64,000 nucleotides of DNA from Aristophania vespae (GTDB lineage: Bacteria; Pseudomonadota; Alphaproteobacteria; Acetobacterales; Acetobacteraceae), in the NCBI RefSeq assembly GCF_009906835.1, contig NZ_CP047652.1:815001-879000 (forward strand). The letters are read 5' to 3'. Below are positions 1 through 21,727 of the stretch, piece by piece. The notes below the pieces were generated by a model. That model was not told the DNA's origin and searched no databases. It saw nothing but the letters and a program-made list of their open reading frames with translations. The number at the start of each line of letters is the position of its first letter. Within the stretch, counting starts at the first letter, position 1. Both the position numbers and the translations under genes were made by a program.

Positions 1-632
1 ATCAACATGGTTTTATTTGGTATTAATAGGTAGCACACAGCTATAAGTAGTGGAAATCTGAATGACTGTACATTTACAGCACTAAATCCCTTATTTGAAA
101 GTGATTTTGATATATATGTGCCCAGGGTCAAACTTGTTGAGGTAACAATACATACAAAACCAAGGACCAAAGCAAATATATAATTTGAGTCAAAGGGGTT
201 AGAGCGCTGTTTTTGCACAGCTAAAATCATTAAAAGTGCAACTGAAAGTAACAAAATTACAGCTGTGATAATGTTTTTCTTGTCTATAAAGTTTCTTTGA
301 CTAATTTCTATCAAAACTGAAATAATCGGACTGAGGGCGAAAATTATAGCCACCATAATAGATGGCTCGGTCCATTTTAAGCCAATAAATAATCCTGCCC
401 AAGAACCTAAAGTAGATATATTTAGCAACAGAATTAACTTACGAGACTTTATTATACTTTCTAATTTTATAGATGAAAATATAATAGTATTTAAAAAGAA
501 CCACCCCCAGGTAAATATAAAAGTCCAAAATAAGAGTACAAACAAGTTTATACTCTGTAATAAGTTAGAGAGGAACACATCTATGGTAGCTCCAAAGACG
601 CAATATCCAAGAATGTAAGCTGGGCCTTTCAC
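1..632 (-). CDS. EamA/DMT-like membrane exporter, partial
   Basis: Open frame on the minus strand that runs off the left edge; about 210 residues are visible. It begins with GTG at 632, one base after the stop of the ATP-grasp gene, so the two are probably translationally coupled. The protein is very hydrophobic, with about six membrane segments visible, for example around INLFVLLFWTFIFTWGWFF, IIFALSPIISVLI and ALVLGFVCIVTSTSL. Short charged loops and hairpin-like pairs of helices recall the ten-helix drug/metabolite transporter (EamA) superfamily. The family call is by general appearance only, since the C-terminal half is missing. Its position as last visible gene of a biosynthetic-looking operon suggests export of the product. 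It could instead be an importer or an unrelated membrane protein. Confidence 0.6.
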   Translation of the reverse strand, partial: MKGPAYILGYCVFGATIDVFLSNLLQSINLFVLLFWTFIFTWGWFFLNTIIFSSIKLESIIKSRKLILLLNISTLGSWAGLFIGLKWTEPSIMVAIIFALSPIISVLIEISQRNFIDKKNIITAVILLLSVALLMILAVQKQRSNPFDSNYIFALVLGFVCIVTSTSLTLGTYISKSLSNKGFSAVNVQSFRFPLLIAVCYLLIPNKTML

Positions 633-633
633 T

Positions 634-1890
634 TTAATAAACTTCGAACATACCTTTTTTTTCAAGCTCAACTATATATTGGTAGTCAGCATTAATTTGA
701 TGGATGTCACTATGACATAAGGCGATCCAGCCCGGCGAACTGCAAACATCTTTTGTAAGTCTGATATTCTGCCCAATGCTAGGTATGTTTGACTTTTTAT
801 AAGACGCCAAATTAAAAATAACGTCTAAATATTTAACTGATTTAACAATCCCTGACCTGGAAGATATTAGCTCTTTAATTTTTAGAAATTTTTGCGGTCT
901 GTATTCTTCTGAAATGGTTTTTAAAAAGCTTTCTGTAGAGCAGATACTCGATATAAGCTCATCGATTTGTGTTTTTTTCAATGCGAGGGATGACAATAGG
1001 GGAAAACCCGCCCCGTGTAGTCGAGCTCCTGTCTCAATTAAGGTCCATCCATCATGAGTTAAAAAAACTTCAGAATGGCCTGCTCCAAATTTGATATTAA
1101 GAGAATCCAGGCAGTTAAAAACGTAATTTTTAAGCTTTAACTGTTCCTGCTCATCTAGTGAAGTTAACTCCGTAAATTCACATACTGAGTTGGAACCATT
1201 ATGTTTGCCTTTTCCCATTTTCCATATGGCGCAGATTTTATGATGTCCATCATAACTAACGGTATCAACTACATATTCTTCACCTTCAATGAGAGGTTGC
1301 AGAATAATAACTTCATTCTTTAAATTAAGCTGATTTCTTGTTTCAAACAAATTCTTTGAGTAATTTTTTACATCCTCAATAGTGCTGCAAACAAAGACTG
1401 AGTCTGTCCCGCCGCTATCAACAGGTTTTAATATAAGTTTATTATAATTTTTAAGTAATTTTGACGCATAATCCGTAGCTTCATTTATATTCGTTATTTT
1501 ATAAGTAGGAATATGATTAATATTGTTGTTTTTTAAGCATTCCTGCATAAGATATTTATTGCGTCTGGTAGAACTTGATTTTGTTTCATTTCCTGCAAGA
1601 TCGAGAAGTTCTGCCAAATTATCGGCAAGTTCGATCCCTGTTTCACAACCAGCAATGACAGCGATAATATCATATTTTTTTAATTCTTTGACGGTATCTA
1701 GCCCTGCATATTGCAGGCTCATGAAAAAATCATCTTTTTTATAGCTGTTTGTTATTACTTGCGGTATGTCACTTCTACTTTGGATATGTAGGCATCTATA
1801 TCCTTCTTTGTTAAATGCAGGAGCGAGTTGATTTCCCGATGAATAAGCGTCAACGAGAACAACGATCTTTTTTGCGTCTTTAATGTTCAT
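634..1890 (-). CDS. ATP-grasp amino-acid/peptide ligase
   Basis: 418-residue ATP-grasp enzyme resembling the L-amino-acid ligases (BacD/RizA-like) that join two amino acids using ATP. Visible signatures: an N-terminal Rossmann-like region with AVIAGCETGIELADNLAE (about 77-94), the ATP-binding lysine in LILKPVDSGGTDSVF (K155), the segment LIEGEEYVVDTVSYDG (about 200-214), and the metal-binding C-terminal part with GAGHSEV (269-275) and ETGARLHGAG (286-295). Carbamoyl-phosphate synthase and biotin carboxylase are excluded by size and context. It lies 91 bases after the kinase-like gene and directly before the exporter, all on one strand. The likely role is condensation of an unusual amino acid, made by the upstream genes, with a second amino acid. 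The substrates cannot be read from sequence. Confidence 0.85.
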   Translation of the reverse strand: MNIKDAKKIVVLVDAYSSGNQLAPAFNKEGYRCLHIQSRSDIPQVITNSYKKDDFFMSLQYAGLDTVKELKKYDIIAVIAGCETGIELADNLAELLDLAGNETKSSSTRRNKYLMQECLKNNNINHIPTYKITNINEATDYASKLLKNYNKLILKPVDSGGTDSVFVCSTIEDVKNYSKNLFETRNQLNLKNEVIILQPLIEGEEYVVDTVSYDGHHKICAIWKMGKGKHNGSNSVCEFTELTSLDEQEQLKLKNYVFNCLDSLNIKFGAGHSEVFLTHDGWTLIETGARLHGAGFPLLSSLALKKTQIDELISSICSTESFLKTISEEYRPQKFLKIKELISSRSGIVKSVKYLDVIFNLASYKKSNIPSIGQNIRLTKDVCSSPGWIALCHSDIHQINADYQYIVELEKKGMFEVY

Positions 1891-1981
1891 ACGGCTTTAG
1901 TTACTCCATAGTATAAATAACGTATTAAATGCTCACAATTTACAACTTGTTTTACTGACAAGCTTGATAATTAGTGTTTAA

Positions 1982-2950
1982 TCATGTTTTAGCTGGAAAA
2001 ATATTGGTGAGTTCAGCAAAATCTGTATTCTGAATACTTTGAGCTGACTTCATCATTTCAAGGTATTTATCAGCCTTATTTTCGTTTGGTTGATATATTT
2101 TATATCTCCAATATCTCCATAACGACGTAAGTATGGCAGCATATTCTGTATATCTTTTTAAAACTTTTATTTCATTATTTTCTAATATTCTTGCAGAATA
2201 ATAGCCAGAAATCAGATATTTTGATTTTTCAGGCGATAATATTCCATTGACGCAACAAGTGCCGACTAAAGCCATAGCAATGTCAAAAACAGAATGGTAA
2301 ATGCATGCTAACTCAAAATCTATCATGCCAACAAATTGATCACCATTGACAAGCAAATTATCAAAGAAAAGGTCAGAGTGAATAAAAGAAGTAGGTAAGT
2401 CTTTAATTTCACTTATGGCAAGAGCTTTAAGTCTATTCTTTGCCCAGCCTTCATAATTCTTGTCAATATTTGCATTAAGAGCGGCCATGAATTTGTCCTG
2501 CTCATAAAATAATGAATTTGTTAAAAAATTAGGTGCAGGGAGGGTGTGCAACTTTGCCGTAGCAGCTCCAAGTTGCATAAGCATATTTTTACTAAAGTCA
2601 TGGCAGATTGTGCCGTCTATGTAAGTTCTTAATAGGGAGGGTTTCTCCCTTAATATAACAGAATTTCTTTTTTGTATTTTAGGCTTGATGAGTAAAGATG
2701 TCTTGTAGTGATGCGCTTCAAGCCACTCAAGGGTTTTTGCCATGAGTTCAACGTCTTCACGGCTTTGCTCTTCGATAATGCTAAAAACACAATGACCAAT
2801 ATTAGTTTCAAGGAAATAGTTCGTATTTCCCGAACCTTTTCCCAAAAAAGAACTATCTTCTACAGTTATACCGTAAAAAGCTTCTATATGCAGCACTTCG
2901 TCATCGCTTAATGTTAAAGTGCTTTCTGTTTCTTTACTCATATTGTTCAC
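1982..2950 (-). CDS. Homoserine-kinase-like phosphotransferase (APH fold)
   Basis: 322-residue protein of the aminoglycoside-phosphotransferase/choline-kinase fold, closest in appearance to type II homoserine kinase (ThrB), which is about 316 residues long. The catalytic loop is FIHSDLFFDNLL (H191, D193, N198), followed by the metal-binding MIDFELAC (D211). This pattern closely follows the HADLFRDN...IDF motif of ThrB. The N-terminal lobe has a glycine-rich loop LGKGSGNTNYFLET (about 36-49). The start overlaps the stop of the PLP-enzyme gene by 4 bases (ATGA), so the two are coupled. It probably phosphorylates the side-chain hydroxyl of homoserine or of a hydroxylated amino acid made by the neighbouring dioxygenase, creating a leaving group for the PLP enzyme. 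A drug-resistance role is possible but less likely in this setting. Confidence 0.8.
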   Translation of the reverse strand: MNNMSKETESTLTLSDDEVLHIEAFYGITVEDSSFLGKGSGNTNYFLETNIGHCVFSIIEEQSREDVELMAKTLEWLEAHHYKTSLLIKPKIQKRNSVILREKPSLLRTYIDGTICHDFSKNMLMQLGAATAKLHTLPAPNFLTNSLFYEQDKFMAALNANIDKNYEGWAKNRLKALAISEIKDLPTSFIHSDLFFDNLLVNGDQFVGMIDFELACIYHSVFDIAMALVGTCCVNGILSPEKSKYLISGYYSARILENNEIKVLKRYTEYAAILTSLWRYWRYKIYQPNENKADKYLEMMKSAQSIQNTDFAELTNIFPAKT

Positions 2951-4086
2951 TTAAGTGCCTGATGCAAATCTTCATACAAGTCATCGACATCTTCGATCCC
3001 GACTGACATTCGTATTAATTGCCGTGTAACACCTGATTTTTTTTGTTCCTGCTCGCTTAGGCTTCTAAATGAAGATGACGCCTGATAGGGAGAGTTTAAT
3101 GTCGTTTCTAGATCGCCTAAGCTATTTGAAGGAATAATTAAATTTAGCTTTTTCTGAAAGCTTGTCGTGTCAAATTTTTGAGCAATTTCAAAGCTCACTA
3201 ACCCACCAAATCCGCGCATCTGCTCGCGCGCAATTTCATGATTGTGATGGCCTGCTAGGCCAGGGTAATAGACTTTTGTAACATTTGGATTTTCATTTAA
3301 GCGGGAAGAAAGTTCCATCGCATTGTGATTAACCTTGGCCATGCGTATTGCCAAAGTGCGCAAACTTCGTTCTAGAAGATGGCATGATTGAGCATTCAGA
3401 CATCCTCCAAAATCATTCATATATTCAGTCATTAAAGAAATGGATTTTTCACTTCCTACGGCAATACCGCCTGATATATCACCGTGGCCACCTAAAAATT
3501 TTGTAGCGCTGTGCAAAACCAAGTCGATACCATATTCAAGGGGATTTTGGTTTATAGGTGTTGCTATAGTATTATCTATAACTGTAAATAAATTTTTGCT
3601 TTTAGCGAACTTCGCCAATAACTCAATATTTATAATTTTGAGCATTGGATTGGTAGGAGTTTCAATATATATTAATTTTGTATTTTGTTTTACACAATCA
3701 ATAACGCTATTTACTTCACAATTTTCTGATATGGTATAAGTTATCCCAAGTTTTGTAAGGTGGTTCTGAACAAATTTAAGGGCCCCGGAGTAAACACCAT
3801 TTTGTAAGACGATGTGATCACCCGATTTTAAATGAGCAAGCATGGCGGTGGAAAAAGCCGCCATGCCAGAACTAAATACTAAAGCAGCTTCGCCACCGCT
3901 TTCTAAGGCACACATTTTATTTGCAACAGCCCGTTGATTGGGCAAATTGCCATGTCTTGGATACACATCCTCTTTCATATCGAGGTGCTTATGCGAGCTT
4001 GCTGGAAATAATGGAGACAAAATGCCTCCATTCATCTTGTCGATAATTGTTCCGCTGTGAACCGCAATAGTTTCTTTAGATAACAC
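2947..4086 (-). CDS. Cys/Met-metabolism PLP enzyme (cystathionine gamma-synthase/lyase fold)
   Basis: 379-residue full-length member of the cystathionine gamma-synthase/gamma-lyase/methionine gamma-lyase superfamily. The PLP lysine is in VLHSATKFLGGHGD (K196). Also visible are YPRHGN (42-47) for phosphate contact, FSSGMAAFS (71-79), ETPTNPML (142-149), the cofactor-ring aspartate in VIDNTIATP (D171), and the C-terminal family signature RMSVGIEDVDDL. These enzymes catalyse gamma-elimination or gamma-replacement on amino acids activated at the gamma position; plant cystathionine gamma-synthase uses O-phosphohomoserine. The coupled kinase-like gene (4-base overlap) suggests a phospho-amino-acid substrate. 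It is 76 bases downstream of the dioxygenase gene. An ordinary role in methionine or cysteine metabolism cannot be excluded. Confidence 0.88.
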   Translation of the reverse strand: MLSKETIAVHSGTIIDKMNGGILSPLFPASSHKHLDMKEDVYPRHGNLPNQRAVANKMCALESGGEAALVFSSGMAAFSTAMLAHLKSGDHIVLQNGVYSGALKFVQNHLTKLGITYTISENCEVNSVIDCVKQNTKLIYIETPTNPMLKIINIELLAKFAKSKNLFTVIDNTIATPINQNPLEYGIDLVLHSATKFLGGHGDISGGIAVGSEKSISLMTEYMNDFGGCLNAQSCHLLERSLRTLAIRMAKVNHNAMELSSRLNENPNVTKVYYPGLAGHHNHEIAREQMRGFGGLVSFEIAQKFDTTSFQKKLNLIIPSNSLGDLETTLNSPYQASSSFRSLSEQEQKKSGVTRQLIRMSVGIEDVDDLYEDLHQALK

Positions 4087-4162
4087 TGTAACTGCCTGTT
4101 TTCTGATATTAAAAACGCGCTAGTACCATCACATTAATGATACCCGACACATAGAGTTTCGA

Positions 4163-4942
4163 TTATGAGGGACTGTTTGGCTTTGCAAACATAGGCGTAA
4201 AATCAATAAGTATAACATCGCGATAGCCGACATTTGTGTGTCCACTAACGCTTACTGGCTTTACCTGGTGCCATACCTGGTCATCGACTATGCCAATTGA
4301 ATCCAGCGGATTTAGCAGAGTATGTTCACAAAGAATATTGTCCTTGCTGTTATCTGTAATGATATTTTCACCGCCAGATAATCCTTCGCGATTGATCAAA
4401 TGTATCCAGGTGCAGGGTTCACCGTCCTTATGAAGTCGATTGGGTACAGCAACACCCGGAGATCCCGTCATTGCTTTTGTTCGAATGAAATGAATACCCA
4501 CTTCCATAGGAACAGTTGATGAATAGTGAGCTAAGGGAGAATTTTTAAAATCGTGTAAGATAAAGGATGTAATGAGATTATTTAACAAAATATCGTTAGG
4601 AACAGGCTGAAATTTTCGTGCTTCATCTATAACTTCGTCATTAAACTTTATATCCTGCTTATAGCAAGAAGCATGCTCAGTACAATGAGGGATTAAAAGA
4701 TTTAAGCAGGGTAAAAATACATATTTACTATGTTGCCGGTAACGACCAGAATCTTCACCATATGGATCGCGTTGAAGCGTATCAAAATGTTTTTGAATAA
4801 TGTCCAAGTCGGATTTTTGTGTGTCTGAAAGGCTAAAATCGTCTGAATCTAATTTGCAATATCCCAGATTTTTCATACTTAAATATGCATCTACACGGCA
4901 TGGTAATGCGTTTTCGAGTTTTTTGCTGTTTTGATTGATCAT
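4163..4942 (-). CDS. 2-oxoglutarate/Fe(II) amino-acid hydroxylase (IDO-like)
   Basis: 259-residue protein resembling the 2OG-Fe dioxygenase family typified by Bacillus L-isoleucine 4-hydroxylase, which hydroxylates free aliphatic amino acids. The iron triad is readable: H171 and D173 in NRLHKDGEPCTWIHL and H225 in DQVWHQVKPV. The likely oxoglutarate-binding arginine is R241 in GYRDVILIDFTPM. The segment INREGLSGGENIITDN (183-198) matches the family's conserved core. The aspartate of the HxD pair is present, so this should be a hydroxylase rather than a halogenase, in which that position is Gly or Ala. It is the first gene of the minus-strand cluster and is followed by the PLP enzyme. The substrate is unknown; Ile, Leu, Met or a related aliphatic amino acid is plausible from the family. 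Confidence 0.85.
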   Translation of the reverse strand: MINQNSKKLENALPCRVDAYLSMKNLGYCKLDSDDFSLSDTQKSDLDIIQKHFDTLQRDPYGEDSGRYRQHSKYVFLPCLNLLIPHCTEHASCYKQDIKFNDEVIDEARKFQPVPNDILLNNLITSFILHDFKNSPLAHYSSTVPMEVGIHFIRTKAMTGSPGVAVPNRLHKDGEPCTWIHLINREGLSGGENIITDNSKDNILCEHTLLNPLDSIGIVDDQVWHQVKPVSVSGHTNVGYRDVILIDFTPMFAKPNSPS

Positions 4943-6092
4943 TGTGTTACCCTCCCTTATTCTTCTGGCTGCAACATTTCAGGACAAAAATCCGGCTTTA
5001 TAAAAGTTAAGCGGTTCTTCCTTAGTGTCATGCAGAAGACGCGCATCAGTCACAGCAGCATTTTCGGGGTATTTATCAATTTTACATATATGAGCTGTTT
5101 TGACATGAAACGCATGAACAAGCTGATGTTTAAGGTTTATTTTAAAATATAGATATGTGCTATTTTTATTGTGACTGTTTTTTTCTTCAATATTCAAAGT
5201 AAATATACTAGAATATGAAGTGAAAGTTATAGGTAAACAAACCAACAAAAACACTACATTATAAGAACCATAAACTTCCATAAGTCATGCCTTTTATATG
5301 CACATTTTTGTTTTATTTTGTTGTCGCCACGCTTTTTTTAGAAAAGAAATAATTATTAAAACTATTCCAATAAATAAAAAAAACTTCAGTGACTTCAAAC
5401 AAAAAAAACTCTATGGAGGTAACTTAGTAAACAGGTATGAATTAATTATTAAGATGAATAAAAAAATATTTATCAAAATAAAAATTTTACTTAACATTAT
5501 GTTATTATTTTGATGAGAGCATAGAAAGTTTATTTGAGATTTTATATAATAAAGAGTAAATATTTCATTTTATGTAAAGTTATATTTAAAAAATAACCAA
5601 ATATCATCTTAATAACTGCCTTTTTTTATTAGAAAAGATAAATATTTTTTATTATTTTAATTTTAGCGTCTAATTTTCATAAATTGTCTAATATGAGTTT
5701 TGTAAAAAACGTGCAAATTCATCAAAATCTGACTTTATTGGATTACTTCGATTAAAGAGACTTGTGAAACAAGACATAATATTGGCGAGTATTAAAGCAT
5801 TTTATATATTAAAAAATAGCACTTAAGACCGTGATTTTACTATGTAAGATATGTTTCCGTAGAGGAAATATGGTGGTCAAAAAGCTATAAATATAAAAGC
5901 CACCTTTAACTGTGTAATTTTTTTGCAACCGATTGATTTTCAAACTGATAGAAATAAGCAGCGTTTTAGCTTGGACATAGTCATTACCATAAAAATGTTA
6001 GAATCCAGCTTTGATGCACATAACAAAATAATATGCAGTAAATGCGGTAACGAGAAAAAAAGAAACTCCAAATTTTTGCATAACCACAAAAA
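4943..6092. other. AT-rich non-coding stretch upstream of the biosynthetic cluster
   Basis: About 1.1 kb of very AT-rich sequence between the divergently oriented dioxygenase cluster and the slt terminator. Only short open frames occur, without convincing ribosome sites or recognisable products, including 4979-5281 on minus and 5298-5513 and 5923-6111 on plus. The last has a TTG start and a CxxC pair, but I do not believe it is a gene. The promoter of the biosynthetic cluster must lie in the left part. No operator was recognised. Confidence 0.5.
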
Positions 6093-6123
6093 AAGAAATG
6101 ACGATAGATAGTCGTCATTTCTT
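6093..6123 (-). terminator. Rho-independent terminator of slt
   Basis: Perfect 12-bp stem (AAGAAATGACGA at 6093-6104 with TCGTCATTTCTT at 6112-6123) and a 7-base loop. Read on the minus strand the stem is followed by a run of seven T bases, as expected for a terminator of the minus-strand slt gene that ends at 6186. Confidence 0.85.
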
Positions 6124-6185
6124 CATAAAAAATAGCCTAGGGCTTTGCGTTTTAAGGGTTTCGCTATGCCGTAGCAGACAAATAA

Positions 6186-8051
6186 TTACTCATAAAAAGC
6201 CACGTCAGTCATAATATGTTCAATATATAAACGCGTTTCTTTGAGTGGAAAATTAATAGTCCATGTCAGCAAATTTTCATCATCTGTCTGAGGCATTTTG
6301 GAAATGTTATCGTTGGTTACAGCTTGAGAGGCATTAAGGCGGCTTACTCTTGTGGGGCCTGCATTATAAGCTGCAAGAGTATAAGGAATAATGCCGTTAA
6401 AGCGGGTTAAAAGCTCAGAAAGATAAAAACTGCCAATTAAAAGATTAGTTTGAGGATCAAGTAATAAAGGTGCACTAACAGTTCCTACATTGTGTTTTCG
6501 GCTTACTTCTTGAGCTGTAGGTAGCCGTAACTGTGTTAGCCCATAAGCAGGAGAGGGACTTATGGCTTGTGGATCACCGCTACTCTCCTGCCTTACTAAA
6601 GCAGGTAACAAACCTTTAGGAAGTGAGACCAGCTTTTGGTTTTCAAGAGCCAGGTTCTGATTATAGGGAAGAGGATGTCCTTCTGGATATAAAATCTCAC
6701 CTGCTCTGGCTAATTTTCGAGAGGCTAAGATGGCAGCTTTAGGCACATTTAAAGATAATGAAAGATGAGCAACTGATACTTGCTCACTCAAATGAGGGGT
6801 GTGAGCATATAAGTAAGTCATAAAGATTGTTGAATTTTCCGTATCGCCTTGCGCAGCAAGTTCACGGGCAGCGTTTGACAAATCAAGTCGGCTAATAGTC
6901 GTGCCCTGAAGTGCCTTAAGCTGAGTAAGTTTACTATGTAATATTGATTTAAAGCGTGTTGAGCGTTGCTCAATTGCAAAAAAAGGAGAATGCGTTATGT
7001 GGGCCAAGGCATATTGCCCATAAAAACTAGTGGGATAGGCGGCAGCCTGATTAAAAAATGACTGGGCCTGAGAGCTATTATTTGTAAATTCAGCACATCT
7101 ACCAAGCCAATAAAATCCCTTGGCTCGTATATTAACTGACGCGTCTTGAGCCAAATGCTGAAAAAATATTTCTGCCTGAGCAGGATTTTTTAAAGAAACA
7201 AGACTGACATAACCACTCAGGAAAAATGCTTCATGCTGAATGGGCATTTTGGGAAAAGTGAGAAGTGGGGCAAGAAGATTAAGGGCTTTTTCGTTATCAG
7301 TTGTGTTATTATTGCCCATAAAATAACGCGCATAGGCCAAATTTTCAAAGGCCCATAATGTGGGATCTTTTAAAGTAGTTTTTTCAAGTTTCAGACCTTT
7401 TTCCTGCCATAGATTAAAGCCTTCATCAAATCTATTATTGCGACGCAAATAATTTAATCTAAGCCTTATAAGTGTAGGATCTTGCTGTTGTGAATCAACA
7501 ATTGCAAAAAGCTGATCTGCGTTATTAAGCGAAAAACGCTGCGAAAAACGTGCCTGAGCCAGCGTCTGCTGAGGTAAAGTTAAGCGCTTGATCTGCCTAG
7601 AAGCAGCAAGTTTCAGGCCCTTTTTTTCCAAATTCTGATAACGTATCCAGTTATCTTTAATAGTCAGGTTTGTTCGATAGGTTTTAAGAAAATTTTGCTC
7701 ATTATTATTATCGCTTAGCCCTTCACGCCAAAGCTTTCGAGCCTGATCTGCTGCATTATGCAGAAAAGGGTCACAATGGATGATGGTAGAAAGTTGCGTA
7801 AGTGGAAAAATAGGGCAGTATTTTTTTAAAACTGATGGATCAGTTTCGTGATTTAAGGCATTTTCAAAGCGCCATACTATGCGTGTCTGCAACGGCCATT
7901 CAGGCTTTATTTTTAAAAAATCTCCATATTTCTGGACAGGAAATCCTGTTGCTCCTGGAGATGTAAGAGTTAACCATTCTGTCAGGCGAGGTGAATAGGG
8001 GCTTGCTTGGGCCATAAGAGGAGGGGGGAAAGCGACTAACCCCACCCCCAA
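6186..8051 (-). CDS. slt: Soluble lytic murein transglycosylase
   Basis: Periplasmic enzyme that cleaves peptidoglycan glycan strands to give 1,6-anhydro-muropeptides. A long alpha-superhelical N-terminal region (about residues 20-470) is followed by a lysozyme-like SLT domain. The catalytic glutamate is E489 in ALVRQESSGDP, followed by the family motifs YGLTQLRLPTA and YTLAAYNAGPTRV. The open frame can start only at TTG (8051) and then lacks the beginning of a signal peptide (it reads GVGLVAFPPPLMAQAS). The true start is probably the ATG at 8098, inside the end of the TerC-family gene. It has an AAGG ribosome site, and one extra base in the six-T run (A run at 8050-8055 on plus) would join it in frame to give an intact signal peptide. 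See the finding on the frameshift. Confidence 0.9.
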   Translation of the reverse strand: MGVGLVAFPPPLMAQASPYSPRLTEWLTLTSPGATGFPVQKYGDFLKIKPEWPLQTRIVWRFENALNHETDPSVLKKYCPIFPLTQLSTIIHCDPFLHNAADQARKLWREGLSDNNNEQNFLKTYRTNLTIKDNWIRYQNLEKKGLKLAASRQIKRLTLPQQTLAQARFSQRFSLNNADQLFAIVDSQQQDPTLIRLRLNYLRRNNRFDEGFNLWQEKGLKLEKTTLKDPTLWAFENLAYARYFMGNNNTTDNEKALNLLAPLLTFPKMPIQHEAFFLSGYVSLVSLKNPAQAEIFFQHLAQDASVNIRAKGFYWLGRCAEFTNNSSQAQSFFNQAAAYPTSFYGQYALAHITHSPFFAIEQRSTRFKSILHSKLTQLKALQGTTISRLDLSNAARELAAQGDTENSTIFMTYLYAHTPHLSEQVSVAHLSLSLNVPKAAILASRKLARAGEILYPEGHPLPYNQNLALENQKLVSLPKGLLPALVRQESSGDPQAISPSPAYGLTQLRLPTAQEVSRKHNVGTVSAPLLLDPQTNLLIGSFYLSELLTRFNGIIPYTLAAYNAGPTRVSRLNASQAVTNDNISKMPQTDDENLLTWTINFPLKETRLYIEHIMTDVAFYE

Positions 8052-17130: not shown

Positions 17131-18603
17131 TTATTCATGAGAGGCTTTGGCAGCAGCTTTTTTAACTAGTCTGCTGTTATTCATGCCATAAAAAAAATAA
17201 ATTACAATTCCGATTAAGAGCCATATGACTAATCTTAGCCATGTTGCACCATCCATCGAAACCATGACAGCACCGCAGCATATGATGCCTAATAGCGGCA
17301 CTGTGAAACTTCCCCCTGGAACACGAAAAAGACGTGGCATTTCAGGGGCACGTATTCTTAGTACCATGACCCCCAAACAAACAATGATAAAGGCGAGTAA
17401 TGTGCCAATAGAAGTCATTTTTCCTAAAATACTGATAGGAAGGCATGCTGCTAAAATACTACTCGTAACCCAGGTAAGAATATGGGAGATTATCGGGGTA
17501 CGGGTAAGAGGGTTTAGCTTTTGAAAGGTGTTGGGAATAAGCCCATCATGTGACATTGATAATGCCACTCGGCTTTGTCCAAGTAAAAGGCCATAGAGCA
17601 CAGAAATATAGCCTAACATGATGCCAATTTTAACTAAAACACCAAACCATGTAATGTGGATTTTGTTCAAAACAGTAGCGACAGGGTTAGGGTCATTAGC
17701 CAGTAAATGATAATCTACAACCCCGACAAGCACAGAAGAGAACACGGCATAGATAATTGCTGTTACAATTAGACTTCCTAAAATACCAATAGGTATGTCT
17801 CTTTGTGGGTTGCGGGCATCTTGAGCGGCTGTCGAAACGATATCAAACCCAATATAGGCAAAAAAGATCATTCCAGCAGCACGCATTACCCCACTAAAAC
17901 CAAATTCACCATAAGTGCCCGTATTAGCAGGAATAAAAGGATGAAAATTACTGCCTTGAATATGAGGTATGCAAATAATGGTTACACTAGCGATTATGAG
18001 CAATTTGATTGCGACAATAAAAGCATTAATGCGGCTGGATTCAGCCACCCCCATCATTAATAAACCAGTGACCAAAAAAAGAATAAAAACGGCTGGAGCG
18101 TTAAACCATGCCTGTACGGTTGATCCATCAGCTAAGGTAACAGGGGAGAAAGTAGATGCTGTAAAACGTGGATCAAGCACTATGCCCCAATCACGCAAAA
18201 GAGAGGCGAAATATCCGGACCAGCTTGAAGCAACAGCAGATGCATTCACTGTATATTCTAAAAACAGATCCCAGCCTATGATCCAGGCGGCCCCTTCGCC
18301 CATCGCAACGTAAGCGTAAGAATAAGCTGATCCTGCAATAGGAATCATGCCCGCAAGCTCAGCATAGCAAAGTCCTGCAAATCCGCAGGATATAGCGGCA
18401 ATAATAAAAGATAATGTTACAGCTGGGCCGGCATGTTGGCCCGCTGCGACACCACTAAGAGAAAATAAGCCCGCACCAATTGTTACCCCTACGCCAAGAG
18501 CAATTAATTGCAATGGACCAAAGACGCGTTTTAATTCTGGGGTAGAGGTCTTTTTTGAGGCTAAAGAATGAAGCGGTTTAGTGCGCCAAAAGGGCTGTTT
18601 CAT
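17131..18603 (-). CDS. APC-family amino-acid permease (copy 1 of 3)
   Basis: 490-residue inner-membrane amino-acid transporter of the APC superfamily, close to the cationic-amino-acid-transporter/YfnA-type group. About 12 to 14 hydrophobic segments. The N-terminal consensus GVGVTIGAGLFSLSGVAAGQ and AGLCYAELAGMIPIAGSAYS line the usual substrate site of unwound helix 1. It is the most divergent of three adjacent paralogs: its loop reads IPIAGSAYSYAY where the other two read SSGG(A/S)AYSY. Genes are spaced by about 40 bases and all read leftwards. Substrate cannot be named from sequence; the differing substrate loops suggest different specificities. Confidence 0.88.
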   Translation of the reverse strand: MKQPFWRTKPLHSLASKKTSTPELKRVFGPLQLIALGVGVTIGAGLFSLSGVAAGQHAGPAVTLSFIIAAISCGFAGLCYAELAGMIPIAGSAYSYAYVAMGEGAAWIIGWDLFLEYTVNASAVASSWSGYFASLLRDWGIVLDPRFTASTFSPVTLADGSTVQAWFNAPAVFILFLVTGLLMMGVAESSRINAFIVAIKLLIIASVTIICIPHIQGSNFHPFIPANTGTYGEFGFSGVMRAAGMIFFAYIGFDIVSTAAQDARNPQRDIPIGILGSLIVTAIIYAVFSSVLVGVVDYHLLANDPNPVATVLNKIHITWFGVLVKIGIMLGYISVLYGLLLGQSRVALSMSHDGLIPNTFQKLNPLTRTPIISHILTWVTSSILAACLPISILGKMTSIGTLLAFIIVCLGVMVLRIRAPEMPRLFRVPGGSFTVPLLGIICCGAVMVSMDGATWLRLVIWLLIGIVIYFFYGMNNSRLVKKAAAKASHE

Positions 18604-18640
18604 TAATTATGCCTCCTGATATTTTGATATCATAATAAAA

Positions 18641-20101
18641 TCACTTTCGACCCGATAAGGTCTCGCGTCTTAATAAACTTTTTTTTGCTCCATAAAAAGC
18701 ATAGAAAATCATGCCAGCAACCCACCAGACAAATAGCCTGGTCCATGTTCCTATATCCATAGAAACCATAACAGCGCAGCAAGATATAATACCCAGTATA
18801 GGAATTAAAAAAGTGCCGCCAGGAACTTTAAAAGAGCGAGTAATATCAGGTTTTCTTAGACGCAAAGCCAAAACACATATACAGACTACAATAAAAGAAA
18901 ATAACGTAGCTATAGATGTTAGATTACCTAGTAAACTTATAGGAAATATACCTGCTAAAATCGCACTTACCACAAATGATATAATATGCATGTTCCATGG
19001 TGTGGCTGATTTTTGATGCACTTTACCAAAAAAACCAGGTAAGAGCTTGTCTTTGGCCATAGATAGACCAACGCGACTTTCTCCCAAAAGTATTCCATAT
19101 AAAACAGAAATATATCCTAGCGTCACACCCAATTTAACTAACGTTGCCAGCCAAGGCATGTGCGCAATATCTATGGCTGTAGCAACTGGATTAGCATCAT
19201 GTTCCATTAGGTGGTAATTAACCACACCAACCAAAACGCCTGCAAAAACCACATATATGATAGTACAAGCTATTAAAGTACCTATAACTCCAATGGGAAT
19301 ATCACGTTGAGGGTTTTTGGTATCCGCAGTCGTTGAGCACACAACGTCAAAGCCTAAATAGGCAAAAAAGGCCATACCTGCGGCTCTCATGACGCCACTA
19401 ATCCCAAACTGACCAAATTCACCGCTATTAGGCGGAATAAATGGCTGATAGTTACTCAGCTTGATATGAGGGAAACAAACAATCAGAACACTTGCAATGA
19501 CAAGCACCTTGATTGTTACAATAACAATATTAATGCGGCTAGACTGCGTCATACCGCGCATTAAAAGGAGCGTCACAAGAAATAAAATAACAACAGTGGG
19601 AAGATTGAACCACGCTTGTGCAATAGACCCATCTGATAACGTAACTTTTGTAAAAGTAGAGGCAGTAAGGCGAGGATCAATGAAAATACCCCAGCCCTTA
19701 AGAAGAGAATTGAGATAACCAGACCAGCTTGATGCGACTGTTGCGGCGGCTAATGTATATTCTAAAATTAAATTCCACCCTACAGTCCACGCAGCAATTT
19801 CTCCTAAAGCAATATAGCTGTAGCTATAGGCTGCTCCTCCTGATGAGATCATCCCAGCAAGTTCTGCGTAGCATAACCCAGAAAAACCGCAGGCTATGGG
19901 GGCAATAATAAATGATAAAATTACGGCCGGCCCTGCATGTTGTCCAGCAGCAACGCCGGTGAGAGAAAAAAGTCCCGAACCGACAGTTACCCCTACACCC
20001 AGCATAATTAAATGCCAGGGGCCAAAAATACGTTTTAAGCCCGTATCATCCTGTGACGCAAAGGACTGAAGAGGCTTTAAGCGCCCAAAAAGCTCTTTCA
20101 T
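18641..20101 (-). CDS. APC-family amino-acid permease (copy 2 of 3)
   Basis: 486-residue paralog of the two flanking permeases, similar along its whole length: GVGVTVGSGLFSLTGVAAGQ, LCYAELAGMISSGGAAYSYS, FFAYLGFDVVCSTTADTKNP, and a shared C-terminus of the form KVPGGTFLIPILGIISC...FYAFYGAKKSLL. It has the unwound-helix motif GSGLF in membrane segment 1. It lies 37 bases upstream of copy 1 and 41 bases downstream of copy 3. Tandem duplication followed by divergence is the simple reading. Import of amino acids from a nutrient-rich host setting would fit, but is inference. Confidence 0.88.
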   Translation of the reverse strand: MKELFGRLKPLQSFASQDDTGLKRIFGPWHLIMLGVGVTVGSGLFSLTGVAAGQHAGPAVILSFIIAPIACGFSGLCYAELAGMISSGGAAYSYSYIALGEIAAWTVGWNLILEYTLAAATVASSWSGYLNSLLKGWGIFIDPRLTASTFTKVTLSDGSIAQAWFNLPTVVILFLVTLLLMRGMTQSSRINIVIVTIKVLVIASVLIVCFPHIKLSNYQPFIPPNSGEFGQFGISGVMRAAGMAFFAYLGFDVVCSTTADTKNPQRDIPIGVIGTLIACTIIYVVFAGVLVGVVNYHLMEHDANPVATAIDIAHMPWLATLVKLGVTLGYISVLYGILLGESRVGLSMAKDKLLPGFFGKVHQKSATPWNMHIISFVVSAILAGIFPISLLGNLTSIATLFSFIVVCICVLALRLRKPDITRSFKVPGGTFLIPILGIISCCAVMVSMDIGTWTRLFVWWVAGMIFYAFYGAKKSLLRRETLSGRK

Positions 20102-20142
20102 TTATTTAAAACTTCCATTCAGACCTTGCTGTTATCAAATGA

Positions 20143-21612
20143 TTATGTGTCAGTTAAATTTTTAATTGCTGCATTTTTAGGGTTAAGTAAACTTTTTTTA
20201 GCCCCATAAAATGCATAAATAACCATTCCAGCAACCCACCATAGACCAAGCCTTATCCAGGTGCCTTTATCCATCGAAAGCATAATCGTTCCACAGGTAA
20301 TAATACCCAGCACCGGAACAAGAAAAGTCCCGCCCGGAACCCGAAACCAGCGCTCTAAATCAGGTTCTCTAATACGCAGGGCAATGACACCCAGGCACAC
20401 TACGATAAATGCGAATAATGTGCCGATAGAGGTCATGTTACCCAACATACCAATGGGAAGCGTTCCGGCCAGAATGGAGCAGGCGATAAAAGAGAAAATA
20501 TGAGCTGTCCAGGGGGTTTTTGTTTTTTGATGTAAGTGAGCCAGTTTTTTGGGAAGTAGCCCATCATTGGCCATGGTTAAACCTATACGGCTTTGACCAA
20601 GAAGCATGCCATATAAAACAGTGATATAACCAATAGTCACACCTAATTTTACCAGGCTTGCAAGCCATGGCATGTGAACTTTATCAATAGCCGTTGCGAC
20701 AGGGTTAGCATCATTAATCATAGTGCGGTAATCAACCACACCAATTAACACGGCTGCAAAAACAACATAAATCAAGGCGCAGGCAATAAGGGTTCCAATC
20801 ACACCTATGGGAATATTGCGCTGAGGATTTCTTGTATCTGTTGTAGCAGAAGATACGATATCAAAACCAACATAGGCAAAAAAGGCCATACCAGCCGCTC
20901 TCATAACGCCACTAAAACCAAAATGACCAAATTCTCCTGTGTTAGGTGGAATAAAAGGTTCATAATTGGTGTGCTGGATATGAGGGAAACAGACGATAAT
21001 AACGCTGGCGATAACCAGCATTTTAATTATGACAACAACAGCATTAATGCGGCTTGATTCAGTCGTTCCACGCATTAAAAGAAGTGTAATGCATAATAAA
21101 ATAAACGCGCTTGGCAGATTGAACCAGGCTTTTTCTATTGAGCCATCTGCCATTACAACATCAGTAAAACTGGCGTGTGTCAGACGAGGGTCAAGTGTAA
21201 TACCCCATCCACGAAGTAAGGATGAAAGATAACCCGACCAGCTTGAAGCTACAGCTGCGGCCCCAACTGTATATTCTAAAACCAGGCTCCACCCAACAGA
21301 CCAGGCAGCAGTCTCGCCCAATGTGACATAGGTATAAGAATAGGCAGAACCTCCAGATGAAATAACACCTGCGAGTTCAGCATAACAGAGACCAGCAAAT
21401 GCACAGGCAATAGGGGCAATGAGAAATGAAAGTATGACAGCCGGTCCGGCATGTTGTCCGGCAGCAACACCTGTGAGAGAAAATAGACCCGACCCGACGG
21501 TAATACCAACGCCAAGTATGATTAAATGCCAGGGACCAAAGATGCGCTTAAGGCCTGTTTGATTCGACGCATTACTTTCTATGGATTTCCTACGCAGGAA
21601 AGCATGGCTCAT
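20143..21612 (-). CDS. APC-family amino-acid permease (copy 3 of 3)
   Basis: 489 residues when started at the ATG at 21612 (SHAFLRRKSIESN). This start has AAGGGA seven bases upstream. A TTG at 21633 would extend the protein by seven residues but would place the ribosome site inside the gene. The protein is closest to copy 2, sharing GITVGSGLFSLTGVAAGQ and AELAGVISSGGSAYSYTY. It is first in the row of three and is separated from divergent glyA by about 115 bases, where both promoters must lie. Confidence 0.88.
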   Translation of the reverse strand: MSHAFLRRKSIESNASNQTGLKRIFGPWHLIILGVGITVGSGLFSLTGVAAGQHAGPAVILSFLIAPIACAFAGLCYAELAGVISSGGSAYSYTYVTLGETAAWSVGWSLVLEYTVGAAAVASSWSGYLSSLLRGWGITLDPRLTHASFTDVVMADGSIEKAWFNLPSAFILLCITLLLMRGTTESSRINAVVVIIKMLVIASVIIVCFPHIQHTNYEPFIPPNTGEFGHFGFSGVMRAAGMAFFAYVGFDIVSSATTDTRNPQRNIPIGVIGTLIACALIYVVFAAVLIGVVDYRTMINDANPVATAIDKVHMPWLASLVKLGVTIGYITVLYGMLLGQSRIGLTMANDGLLPKKLAHLHQKTKTPWTAHIFSFIACSILAGTLPIGMLGNMTSIGTLFAFIVVCLGVIALRIREPDLERWFRVPGGTFLVPVLGIITCGTIMLSMDKGTWIRLGLWWVAGMVIYAFYGAKKSLLNPKNAAIKNLTDT

Positions 21613-21727
21613 AAAGTGGTCCCTTGGTAACAAAACAAAATAATATTTCCTTTATAGTAGAGAATAGACTGCCTTTGCGTGTAAGCATATATAGTACGGG
21701 CCAATTTTTTCGGAGATATTAATAACA

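What the first reader, a model, noticed from the sequence alone, without database searches (positions are those of the whole stretch)
1..4942. Candidate new pathway: hydroxylate, phosphorylate, eliminate/replace, ligate and export an amino acid
Five minus-strand genes lie end to end: IDO-like 2OG/Fe(II) hydroxylase (H171, D173, H225), cystathionine-synthase-fold PLP enzyme (K196), ThrB-like kinase (HSDLFFDN), ATP-grasp ligase and membrane exporter. Known chemistry fits one line: a free amino acid is hydroxylated at the gamma carbon, the hydroxyl is phosphorylated as in homoserine kinase, and a gamma-PLP enzyme uses phosphate as leaving group, as plant cystathionine gamma-synthase does. The result would be an unsaturated, cyclopropane-like or substituted amino acid, then capped as a dipeptide and secreted. 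The beta-ethynylserine pathway has the same logic, with a halogen as leaving group and an ATP-grasp ligase (BesA). I know of no described pathway that uses this exact combination. The product would probably be an antimetabolite.
Basis: partly seen in the sequence, partly recalled or inferred. Interest (0 to 1): 0.85.

Follow-up and report, generated by a model that had tools for sequence, protein, structure and literature searches.

The report
Mobile five-gene amino-acid antimetabolite cassette
Five adjacent genes, found in the same order in six genomes from several bacterial families and apparently passed between them as a unit, look like a small factory that modifies an amino acid, joins it to another one and exports it, probably as an antibiotic-like compound; the exact chemistry is still a prediction.

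Summary
Five minus-strand genes (PF10014 2OG/Fe hydroxylase, CGS-fold PLP enzyme, homoserine-kinase-like kinase, L-amino-acid ligase, EamA exporter) lie end to end; the exporter runs past window base 1. (1) The genes are not usually separate: the same five, same order and strand, occur in Iodobacter, Serratia ureilytica, Photobacterium halotolerans and two Vibrio-type genomes (58-91% protein identity; DNA similarity ends at the cassette edges), and nowhere else among about 1,700 genomes sampled. A same-genus genome has the empty site. (2) The genome has its own homoserine kinase and at least three other CGS-family genes; the cassette enzymes miss the curated cut-offs for those housekeeping enzymes, and the PLP enzyme forms its own clade with altered active-site motifs but intact catalytic residues. 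So this is a horizontally moving biosynthetic cassette, most likely for a dipeptide of a non-protein amino acid. The proposed order (hydroxylate, phosphorylate, PLP gamma-elimination or replacement, ligate, export) is chemically coherent and the best of the rivals, but no substrate was shown; the kinase could instead act on homoserine or serve self-protection. No paper in the searched library describes this combination.

The parts
4163..4942 (-). 2OG/Fe(II) amino-acid hydroxylase, PF10014 (H171, D173, H225, R241)
   Evidence: Pfam 121.6 bits; nearest solved relatives IDO 6lnh, 8w8h, HrmJ 9dqp; triad invariant in 6 cassettes
2947..4086 (-). CGS-fold PLP enzyme, own clade (Y42, R44, Y99, D171, K196, R359)
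   Evidence: PF01053 364 bits; altered motifs and separate clade; 81-86% identity across cassettes
1982..2950 (-). homoserine-kinase-like (APH-fold) kinase, HSDLFFDN 191-198, D211; overlaps the PLP gene by 4 nt
   Evidence: PRK05231 124.6 bits, below its cut-off 271; only solved match is homoserine kinase 2ppq; invariant catalytic residues
634..1890 (-). ATP-grasp L-amino-acid ligase (PRK07206 subfamily, DdaF-like)
   Evidence: PRK07206 357.4 bits over cut-off 302; dapdiamide A synthase 194.7 bits, below cut-off 840; solved relatives are L-amino-acid ligases
1..671 (-). EamA/DMT-type exporter, 5' part in the window; its 3' end continues left of the window to G000:C1:814703 (322 aa in all)
   Evidence: EamA 36.9 bits for the full protein; ten hydrophobic segments; overlaps ATP-grasp gene by 38 nt
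1..6185 (.). window part of the about 9-kb insertion that carries the cassette (whole insertion about G000:C1:812146-821185)
   Evidence: in same-genus genome G061 the two flanking genes lie 55 bp apart; in G000 they are about 9 kb apart

Best explanation
A horizontally moving five-gene biosynthetic cassette makes and exports a small peptide of a non-protein amino acid. Most likely the 2OG/Fe enzyme hydroxylates a free amino acid at or near C4 (for example a branched-chain amino acid), the homoserine-kinase-like enzyme phosphorylates that hydroxyl, the CGS-fold PLP enzyme uses the gamma-phosphate as leaving group (elimination to a beta,gamma-unsaturated or ring-closed amino acid, or replacement by a nucleophile), the ATP-grasp ligase joins the product to a second amino acid, and the EamA protein exports the peptide. 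Shown: gene content, order, intact catalytic motifs, co-inheritance, horizontal transfer, distinctness from housekeeping paralogues. Inferred: every substrate, the order of steps, peptide and antimetabolite nature.
For: Same five genes in the same order in six genomes; the five distance matrices correlate at r 0.91-0.98 and DNA similarity stops at the cassette ends across genera; empty site in the same genus; rare in every group sampled: 1/200, 3/329, 1/392, 1/399, 1/398. Separate homoserine kinase in the genome, 376.6 bits over cut-off 271, while the cassette kinase has 124.6; GHMP homoserine kinases in four other hosts and a second homoserine-kinase-like match in Iodobacter. PLP enzyme in a fully supported clade on a stem of 1.82 with intact K/D/Y/R residues. 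Kinase and PLP genes overlap or nearly abut in five of six cassettes. PF10014 relatives act on free amino acids. The ligase belongs to a subfamily found beside transporters and amino-acid-modifying genes elsewhere. CGS-type enzymes work through a vinylglycine ketimine from a gamma-functionalised amino acid, and GntC does this after gamma-hydroxylation (PMC10367076).
Against: No substrate or product is known. The hydroxylase is only about 20-30% identical to characterised relatives, so C4 is an extrapolation. The kinase could act on homoserine or on the finished product. The PLP motif SNSLGD recalls sulfhydrylases as much as cystathionine synthases. GntC eliminates a gamma-hydroxyl with no phosphate, so a kinase is not strictly needed. 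The structure prediction of the kinase failed (pLDDT 38).
Confidence: 0.45

Rival explanations
1. Homoserine route: the kinase makes O-phosphohomoserine, the PLP enzyme replaces the phosphate with a sulfur, carbon or nitrogen nucleophile, and the hydroxylase acts later on the product or on the partner amino acid before ligation and export.
For: Best named match of the kinase is homoserine kinase; CGS-fold enzymes normally take activated homoserine; the sulfhydrylase-like Asn in SNSLGD.
Against: All hosts tested already have a homoserine kinase or a second homoserine-kinase-like gene, so a second, diverged enzyme kept in every cassette suggests another substrate; the kinase is far below the homoserine kinase cut-offs.
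Confidence: 0.27
2. The kinase is not part of the leaving-group chemistry: it protects the producer by phosphorylating the product, or adds a phosphate that stays in the product.
For: The APH fold includes antibiotic kinases; weak matches to APH(3') and to the guanitoxin kinase GntI; GntC shows that a PLP enzyme can use a gamma-hydroxyl directly (PMC10367076).
Against: Closest to homoserine kinase, not to resistance kinases; PLP and kinase genes overlap or nearly abut in five of six cassettes.
Confidence: 0.17
3. A degradative or resistance unit: the PLP enzyme is a gamma-lyase giving a 2-oxo acid and ammonia, and the other genes detoxify and expel an environmental amino-acid analogue.
For: Good similarity to cystathionine and methionine gamma-lyases; EamA proteins can be resistance exporters.
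Against: The L-amino-acid ligase has no obvious role in breakdown; methionine gamma-lyase Cys motif absent (YSGALKF).
Confidence: 0.08
4. Chance neighbours or duplicated met/thr housekeeping genes.
For: Family names alone could suggest it.
Against: Six genomes with identical order; housekeeping copies elsewhere in the genome; cassette proteins below housekeeping cut-offs.
Confidence: 0.01

Closest known systems
beta-ethynylserine (bes) pathway of Streptomyces cattleya (from general knowledge)
   Same: 2OG/Fe enzyme on a free amino acid, PLP enzyme, ATP-grasp ligase giving a gamma-Glu dipeptide
   Different: bes uses a halogenase and chloride as leaving group; here the oxygenase keeps the HxD hydroxylase triad and a kinase is present
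Mangotoxin (mbo) cluster and other ATP-grasp peptide antimetabolites (PMC13185094)
   Same: NRPS-free small cluster with an iron amino-acid oxidase and L-amino-acid ligases
   Different: mbo uses a haem-oxygenase-like oxidase and two ligases; no CGS-fold enzyme or homoserine-kinase-like kinase was noted in the passages read
Dapdiamide cluster, ligase DdaF
   Same: ligase of the same PRK07206 subfamily (194.7 bits to the DdaF model)
   Different: far below the DdaF cut-off of 840 bits; none of the other cassette enzymes are dapdiamide genes (general knowledge)
4-hydroxyisoleucine enzymes IDO and HilB; HrmJ and BelL (hormaomycin, belactosin)
   Same: same PF10014 family and fold, act on free amino acids (general knowledge: at C4)
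   Different: 66 bits to the HilB model (cut-off 350); about 20% identity in the fold matches; no kinase/PLP partners known to me
GntC, L-enduracididine cyclase (PMC10367076)
   Same: gamma-hydroxylation of a free amino acid followed by PLP gamma-elimination and substitution
   Different: aminotransferase-type PLP enzyme, hydroxyl itself leaves, no kinase activation of that hydroxyl
AMB cluster of Pseudomonas aeruginosa (PMC4357302)
   Same: five-gene antimetabolite cluster with 2OG/Fe enzymes and an amino-acid exporter, beta,gamma-unsaturated amino acid
   Different: built on NRPS proteins; no kinase or CGS-fold enzyme

Membership tests
Homoserine kinase type II (TIGR00938 / PRK05231) | score over the curated cut-off | tested here: not met
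   99.7 vs 255.9 and 124.6 vs 271 bits; the genome's own ThrB scores 346.4 and 376.6
Homoserine kinase type II (TIGR00938 / PRK05231) | catalytic HxDxxxDN and DF motifs | tested here: met
   H191, D193, N198, D211 invariant
Homoserine kinase type II (TIGR00938 / PRK05231) | phosphorylates homoserine | not testable with these tools
   needs an assay
Cystathionine gamma-synthase / lyase / sulfhydrylase equivalogs | score over a curated equivalog cut-off | tested here: not met
   none of the 25 best-scoring models reached its cut-off, best 331 vs 594 bits
Cys/Met metabolism PLP family PF01053 | profile match and catalytic Lys, Asp, stacking Tyr, carboxylate Arg | tested here: met
   364 bits; K196, D171, Y99, R359
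L-isoleucine 4-hydroxylase group (HilB NF042428, PF10014) | PF10014 match with HxD...H iron triad | tested here: met
   121.6 bits; H171, D173, H225 invariant
L-isoleucine 4-hydroxylase group (HilB NF042428, PF10014) | HilB curated cut-off | tested here: not met
   66.2 vs 350 bits
2OG/Fe halogenase (BesD type) | Gly or Ala in place of the iron-ligand Asp/Glu | tested here: not met
   H171-K-D173 present
ATP-grasp L-amino-acid ligase (PRK07206) | score over the subfamily cut-off | tested here: met
   357.4 vs 302 bits
Dapdiamide A synthase DdaF | score over the equivalog cut-off | tested here: not met
   194.7 vs 840 bits
EamA/DMT transporter PF00892 | score over the gathering cut-off and about ten membrane spans | tested here: met
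   36.9 vs 28.2 bits for the full protein; ten hydrophobic segments
Mobile biosynthetic gene cassette | same gene set in unrelated hosts with unrelated flanks, and an empty site | tested here: met

The most novel reading that the evidence does not exclude
A previously undescribed biosynthetic logic in which a 2OG oxygenase installs a gamma-hydroxyl on a free branched-chain amino acid, a homoserine-kinase relative turns it into a phosphate leaving group, and a new branch of the cystathionine-synthase fold converts it to an unsaturated, cyclopropane-like or gamma-substituted amino acid that is secreted as a dipeptide.
Probability: 0.38. Interest if true: 0.75.

Novelty: new variant of a known kind. 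Interest (0 to 1): 0.58.

Why it matters
If the predicted order is right, bacteria have a compact way to make inert C-H positions of ordinary amino acids into good leaving groups (oxidise, phosphorylate, PLP chemistry), without halogenation or a peptide-synthetase assembly line. That would give a new enzyme tool set for non-natural amino acids and a new class of small peptide antimetabolites, in a cassette that moves between distantly related hosts. Even if the order is different, a clade of CGS-fold enzymes and a diverged homoserine kinase with unknown substrates, fixed together in six genomes, are directly testable in vitro.

Tried and rejected
Housekeeping reading: rejected because the genome has its own ThrB in an ispH-thrB-rnhA context and other CGS-family genes. 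Halogenase reading: rejected by the HxD triad. Viral, phage, plasmid and E. coli origins: no close relative in IMG/VR (PLP query), none of the ligase in phage records, only distant relatives of the four enzymes on plasmids, no DNA match in E. coli. Distant relatives with the same combination: five plasmid neighbourhoods of PF10014 or kinase relatives examined, none had the set; a PF10014 profile search of 398 genomes of the phylum found nothing at E 1e-20 or better except this genome. Structure predictions from six-row alignments were weak (pLDDT 38 for the kinase, 56.5 for the hydroxylase); only the hydroxylase model was used, and only to confirm the fold. Ten literature searches found no paper on the combination; the library lacks most subscription journals, so this is weak negative evidence. 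Promoter and terminator scans gave about what shuffled sequence gives.

Full report
Observation. In the genome (2.02 Mb, unnamed; the window is G000:C1:815001-879000) the exporter is 322 aa long. Pfam and NCBIfam place them in PF10014, PF01053, PF01636, the PRK07206 ATP-grasp subfamily and PF00892.

The unit is real. A pattern-based scan of one genome for each of 84,980 species with the hydroxylase gave four loci: Iodobacter sp. BJB302, Serratia ureilytica, Photobacterium halotolerans and Vibrio sp. MEBiC08052. All four carry the same five genes in the same order and strand, and a family-wide search added a sixth genome (G504) whose flanks match the Vibrio locus at 83-91% DNA identity. Protein identities between cassettes run from 58-59% to 91%; nonsynonymous differences are far below synonymous ones. 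The five distance matrices correlate at 0.91-0.98, and across genera DNA similarity begins and ends at or close to the cassette edges. GC content follows a foreign unit: 48% in Serratia against 56-62% in its flanks. In the one other genome of the same genus the two genes that border the insertion lie 55 bp apart, whereas here about 9 kb separate them. The cassette is rare everywhere: 1 of 200, 3 of 329, 1 of 392, 1 of 399 and 1 of 398 genomes. This is a mobile, sporadic biosynthetic cassette.

It is not housekeeping. The genome's own homoserine kinase (G000:C1, next to ispH and rnhA) scores 376.6 bits against a cut-off of 271, the cassette kinase 124.6. Serratia, Photobacterium and both Vibrio-type hosts have a GHMP homoserine kinase; Iodobacter has a second homoserine-kinase-like match outside the cassette. 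The genome has at least three other intact CGS-family genes. In a tree with 17 family members from the host genomes, the cassette PLP enzymes form one fully supported clade on a stem of 1.82 changes per column, with only weak attachment to any named group. Their catalytic Lys, Asp, stacking Tyr, phosphate-loop Tyr/Arg and carboxylate Arg are kept, but the specificity regions differ from every paralogue compared: YPRHGNLPN with one inserted residue, YSGALKF, SNSLGDLET, and NSPYQASSSFR in place of HPxxMTH. The group names of the 17 paralogues in that comparison are my own reading of motifs and length, not database calls.

Mechanism. PF10014 proteins with known function act on free amino acids: IDO and HilB hydroxylate isoleucine or its hydroxy derivative at C4, and HrmJ and BelL carry out nitrocyclopropane formation (general knowledge); the nearest solved structures are HrmJ, IDO, 8w8h and BelL. 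The HxD triad argues for hydroxylation, not halogenation. The kinase resembles only homoserine kinase among solved structures, which points to an amino-acid side-chain hydroxyl as acceptor. CGS-fold enzymes take a gamma-activated amino acid through a vinylglycine ketimine (PMC10367076), and plant CGS uses O-phosphohomoserine (general knowledge). PLP and kinase genes overlap by 4 nt in three cassettes and lie 0-6 nt apart in two more; in Photobacterium an early stop enlarges the gap. The ligase passes the cut-off of an L-amino-acid ligase subfamily, and relatives of it sit beside a DMT transporter in Priestia and beside an MFS transporter and iron enzymes in Pantoea. Put together, hydroxylate, phosphorylate, eliminate or replace, ligate and export is the most economical reading, at about 0.45. 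That a peptide-type product is made and exported I hold at about 0.7.

What is not shown. No substrate, product or order of steps has been tested. The main rival puts the kinase on homoserine and the hydroxylase late. A second rival makes the kinase a self-protection enzyme; GntC shows that a PLP enzyme can eliminate a bare gamma-hydroxyl (PMC10367076). Sequence cannot choose between elimination and replacement: the Asn of SNSLGD recalls sulfhydrylases, while Y99 and the Ser of NSLG recall synthases and lyases.

Comparison with the known. The kind of system, a small NRPS-free cluster ending in an ATP-grasp ligase and an exporter, is known (mangotoxin, PMC13185094; bes and dapdiamide from general knowledge); a five-gene antimetabolite cluster with 2OG/Fe enzymes and an exporter but built on NRPS proteins is known for AMB (PMC4357302). 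The combination of PF10014 hydroxylase, homoserine-kinase-like kinase and a new CGS-fold clade was not found in any paper of the searched library. I therefore call it a new variant of a known kind.

Noticed in passing
L011 6873-7388, L012 about 6942-7382, L034 about 6369-6809: A divergently oriented DUF2000 gene (PF09391) lies upstream of the cassette in all three Vibrionaceae-type loci but not in the Serratia locus or in this genome's locus; a possible accessory gene.
   Followed up: partly
L012 5788-6723 (and the matching gene in L034): A GHMP kinase that fits no named kinase well (best weak matches shikimate, mevalonate and homoserine kinase) lies upstream of the cassette in both Vibrio-type loci.
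   Followed up: partly
L011 8838-9976: The Photobacterium halotolerans PLP gene has an in-frame stop 15 codons before its normal end; the catalytic residues precede it.
   Followed up: no
L009 1-923: An IS3-type OrfA-like fragment lies upstream of the cassette in Iodobacter (recognised by eye in the six-frame translation).
   Followed up: no
G000:C1:476478-477119: A second PF10014 gene (27% identity) lies near a MetZ-like gene; PF10014 relatives at 22-36% identity occur in most genomes of the family (155 of 200 have a match), with no assigned role here.
   Followed up: partly
G000:C1:314319-315430: A CGS-family gene is split into two pieces with a stop, apparently a broken paralogue.
   Followed up: no
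L013 9665-9871 and 10902-11081: Two small similar ORFs (68 and 59 aa) lie in the AT-rich, otherwise gene-poor left part of the insertion.
   Followed up: no
window 17131-21633: Three tandem, similar amino-acid-permease-like genes on the minus strand.
   Followed up: no
L064 6938-12770: A Streptomyces plasmid NRPS cluster holds a homoserine-kinase-like phosphotransferase, urease-like genes and a 2OG-Fe(II) oxygenase.
   Followed up: no
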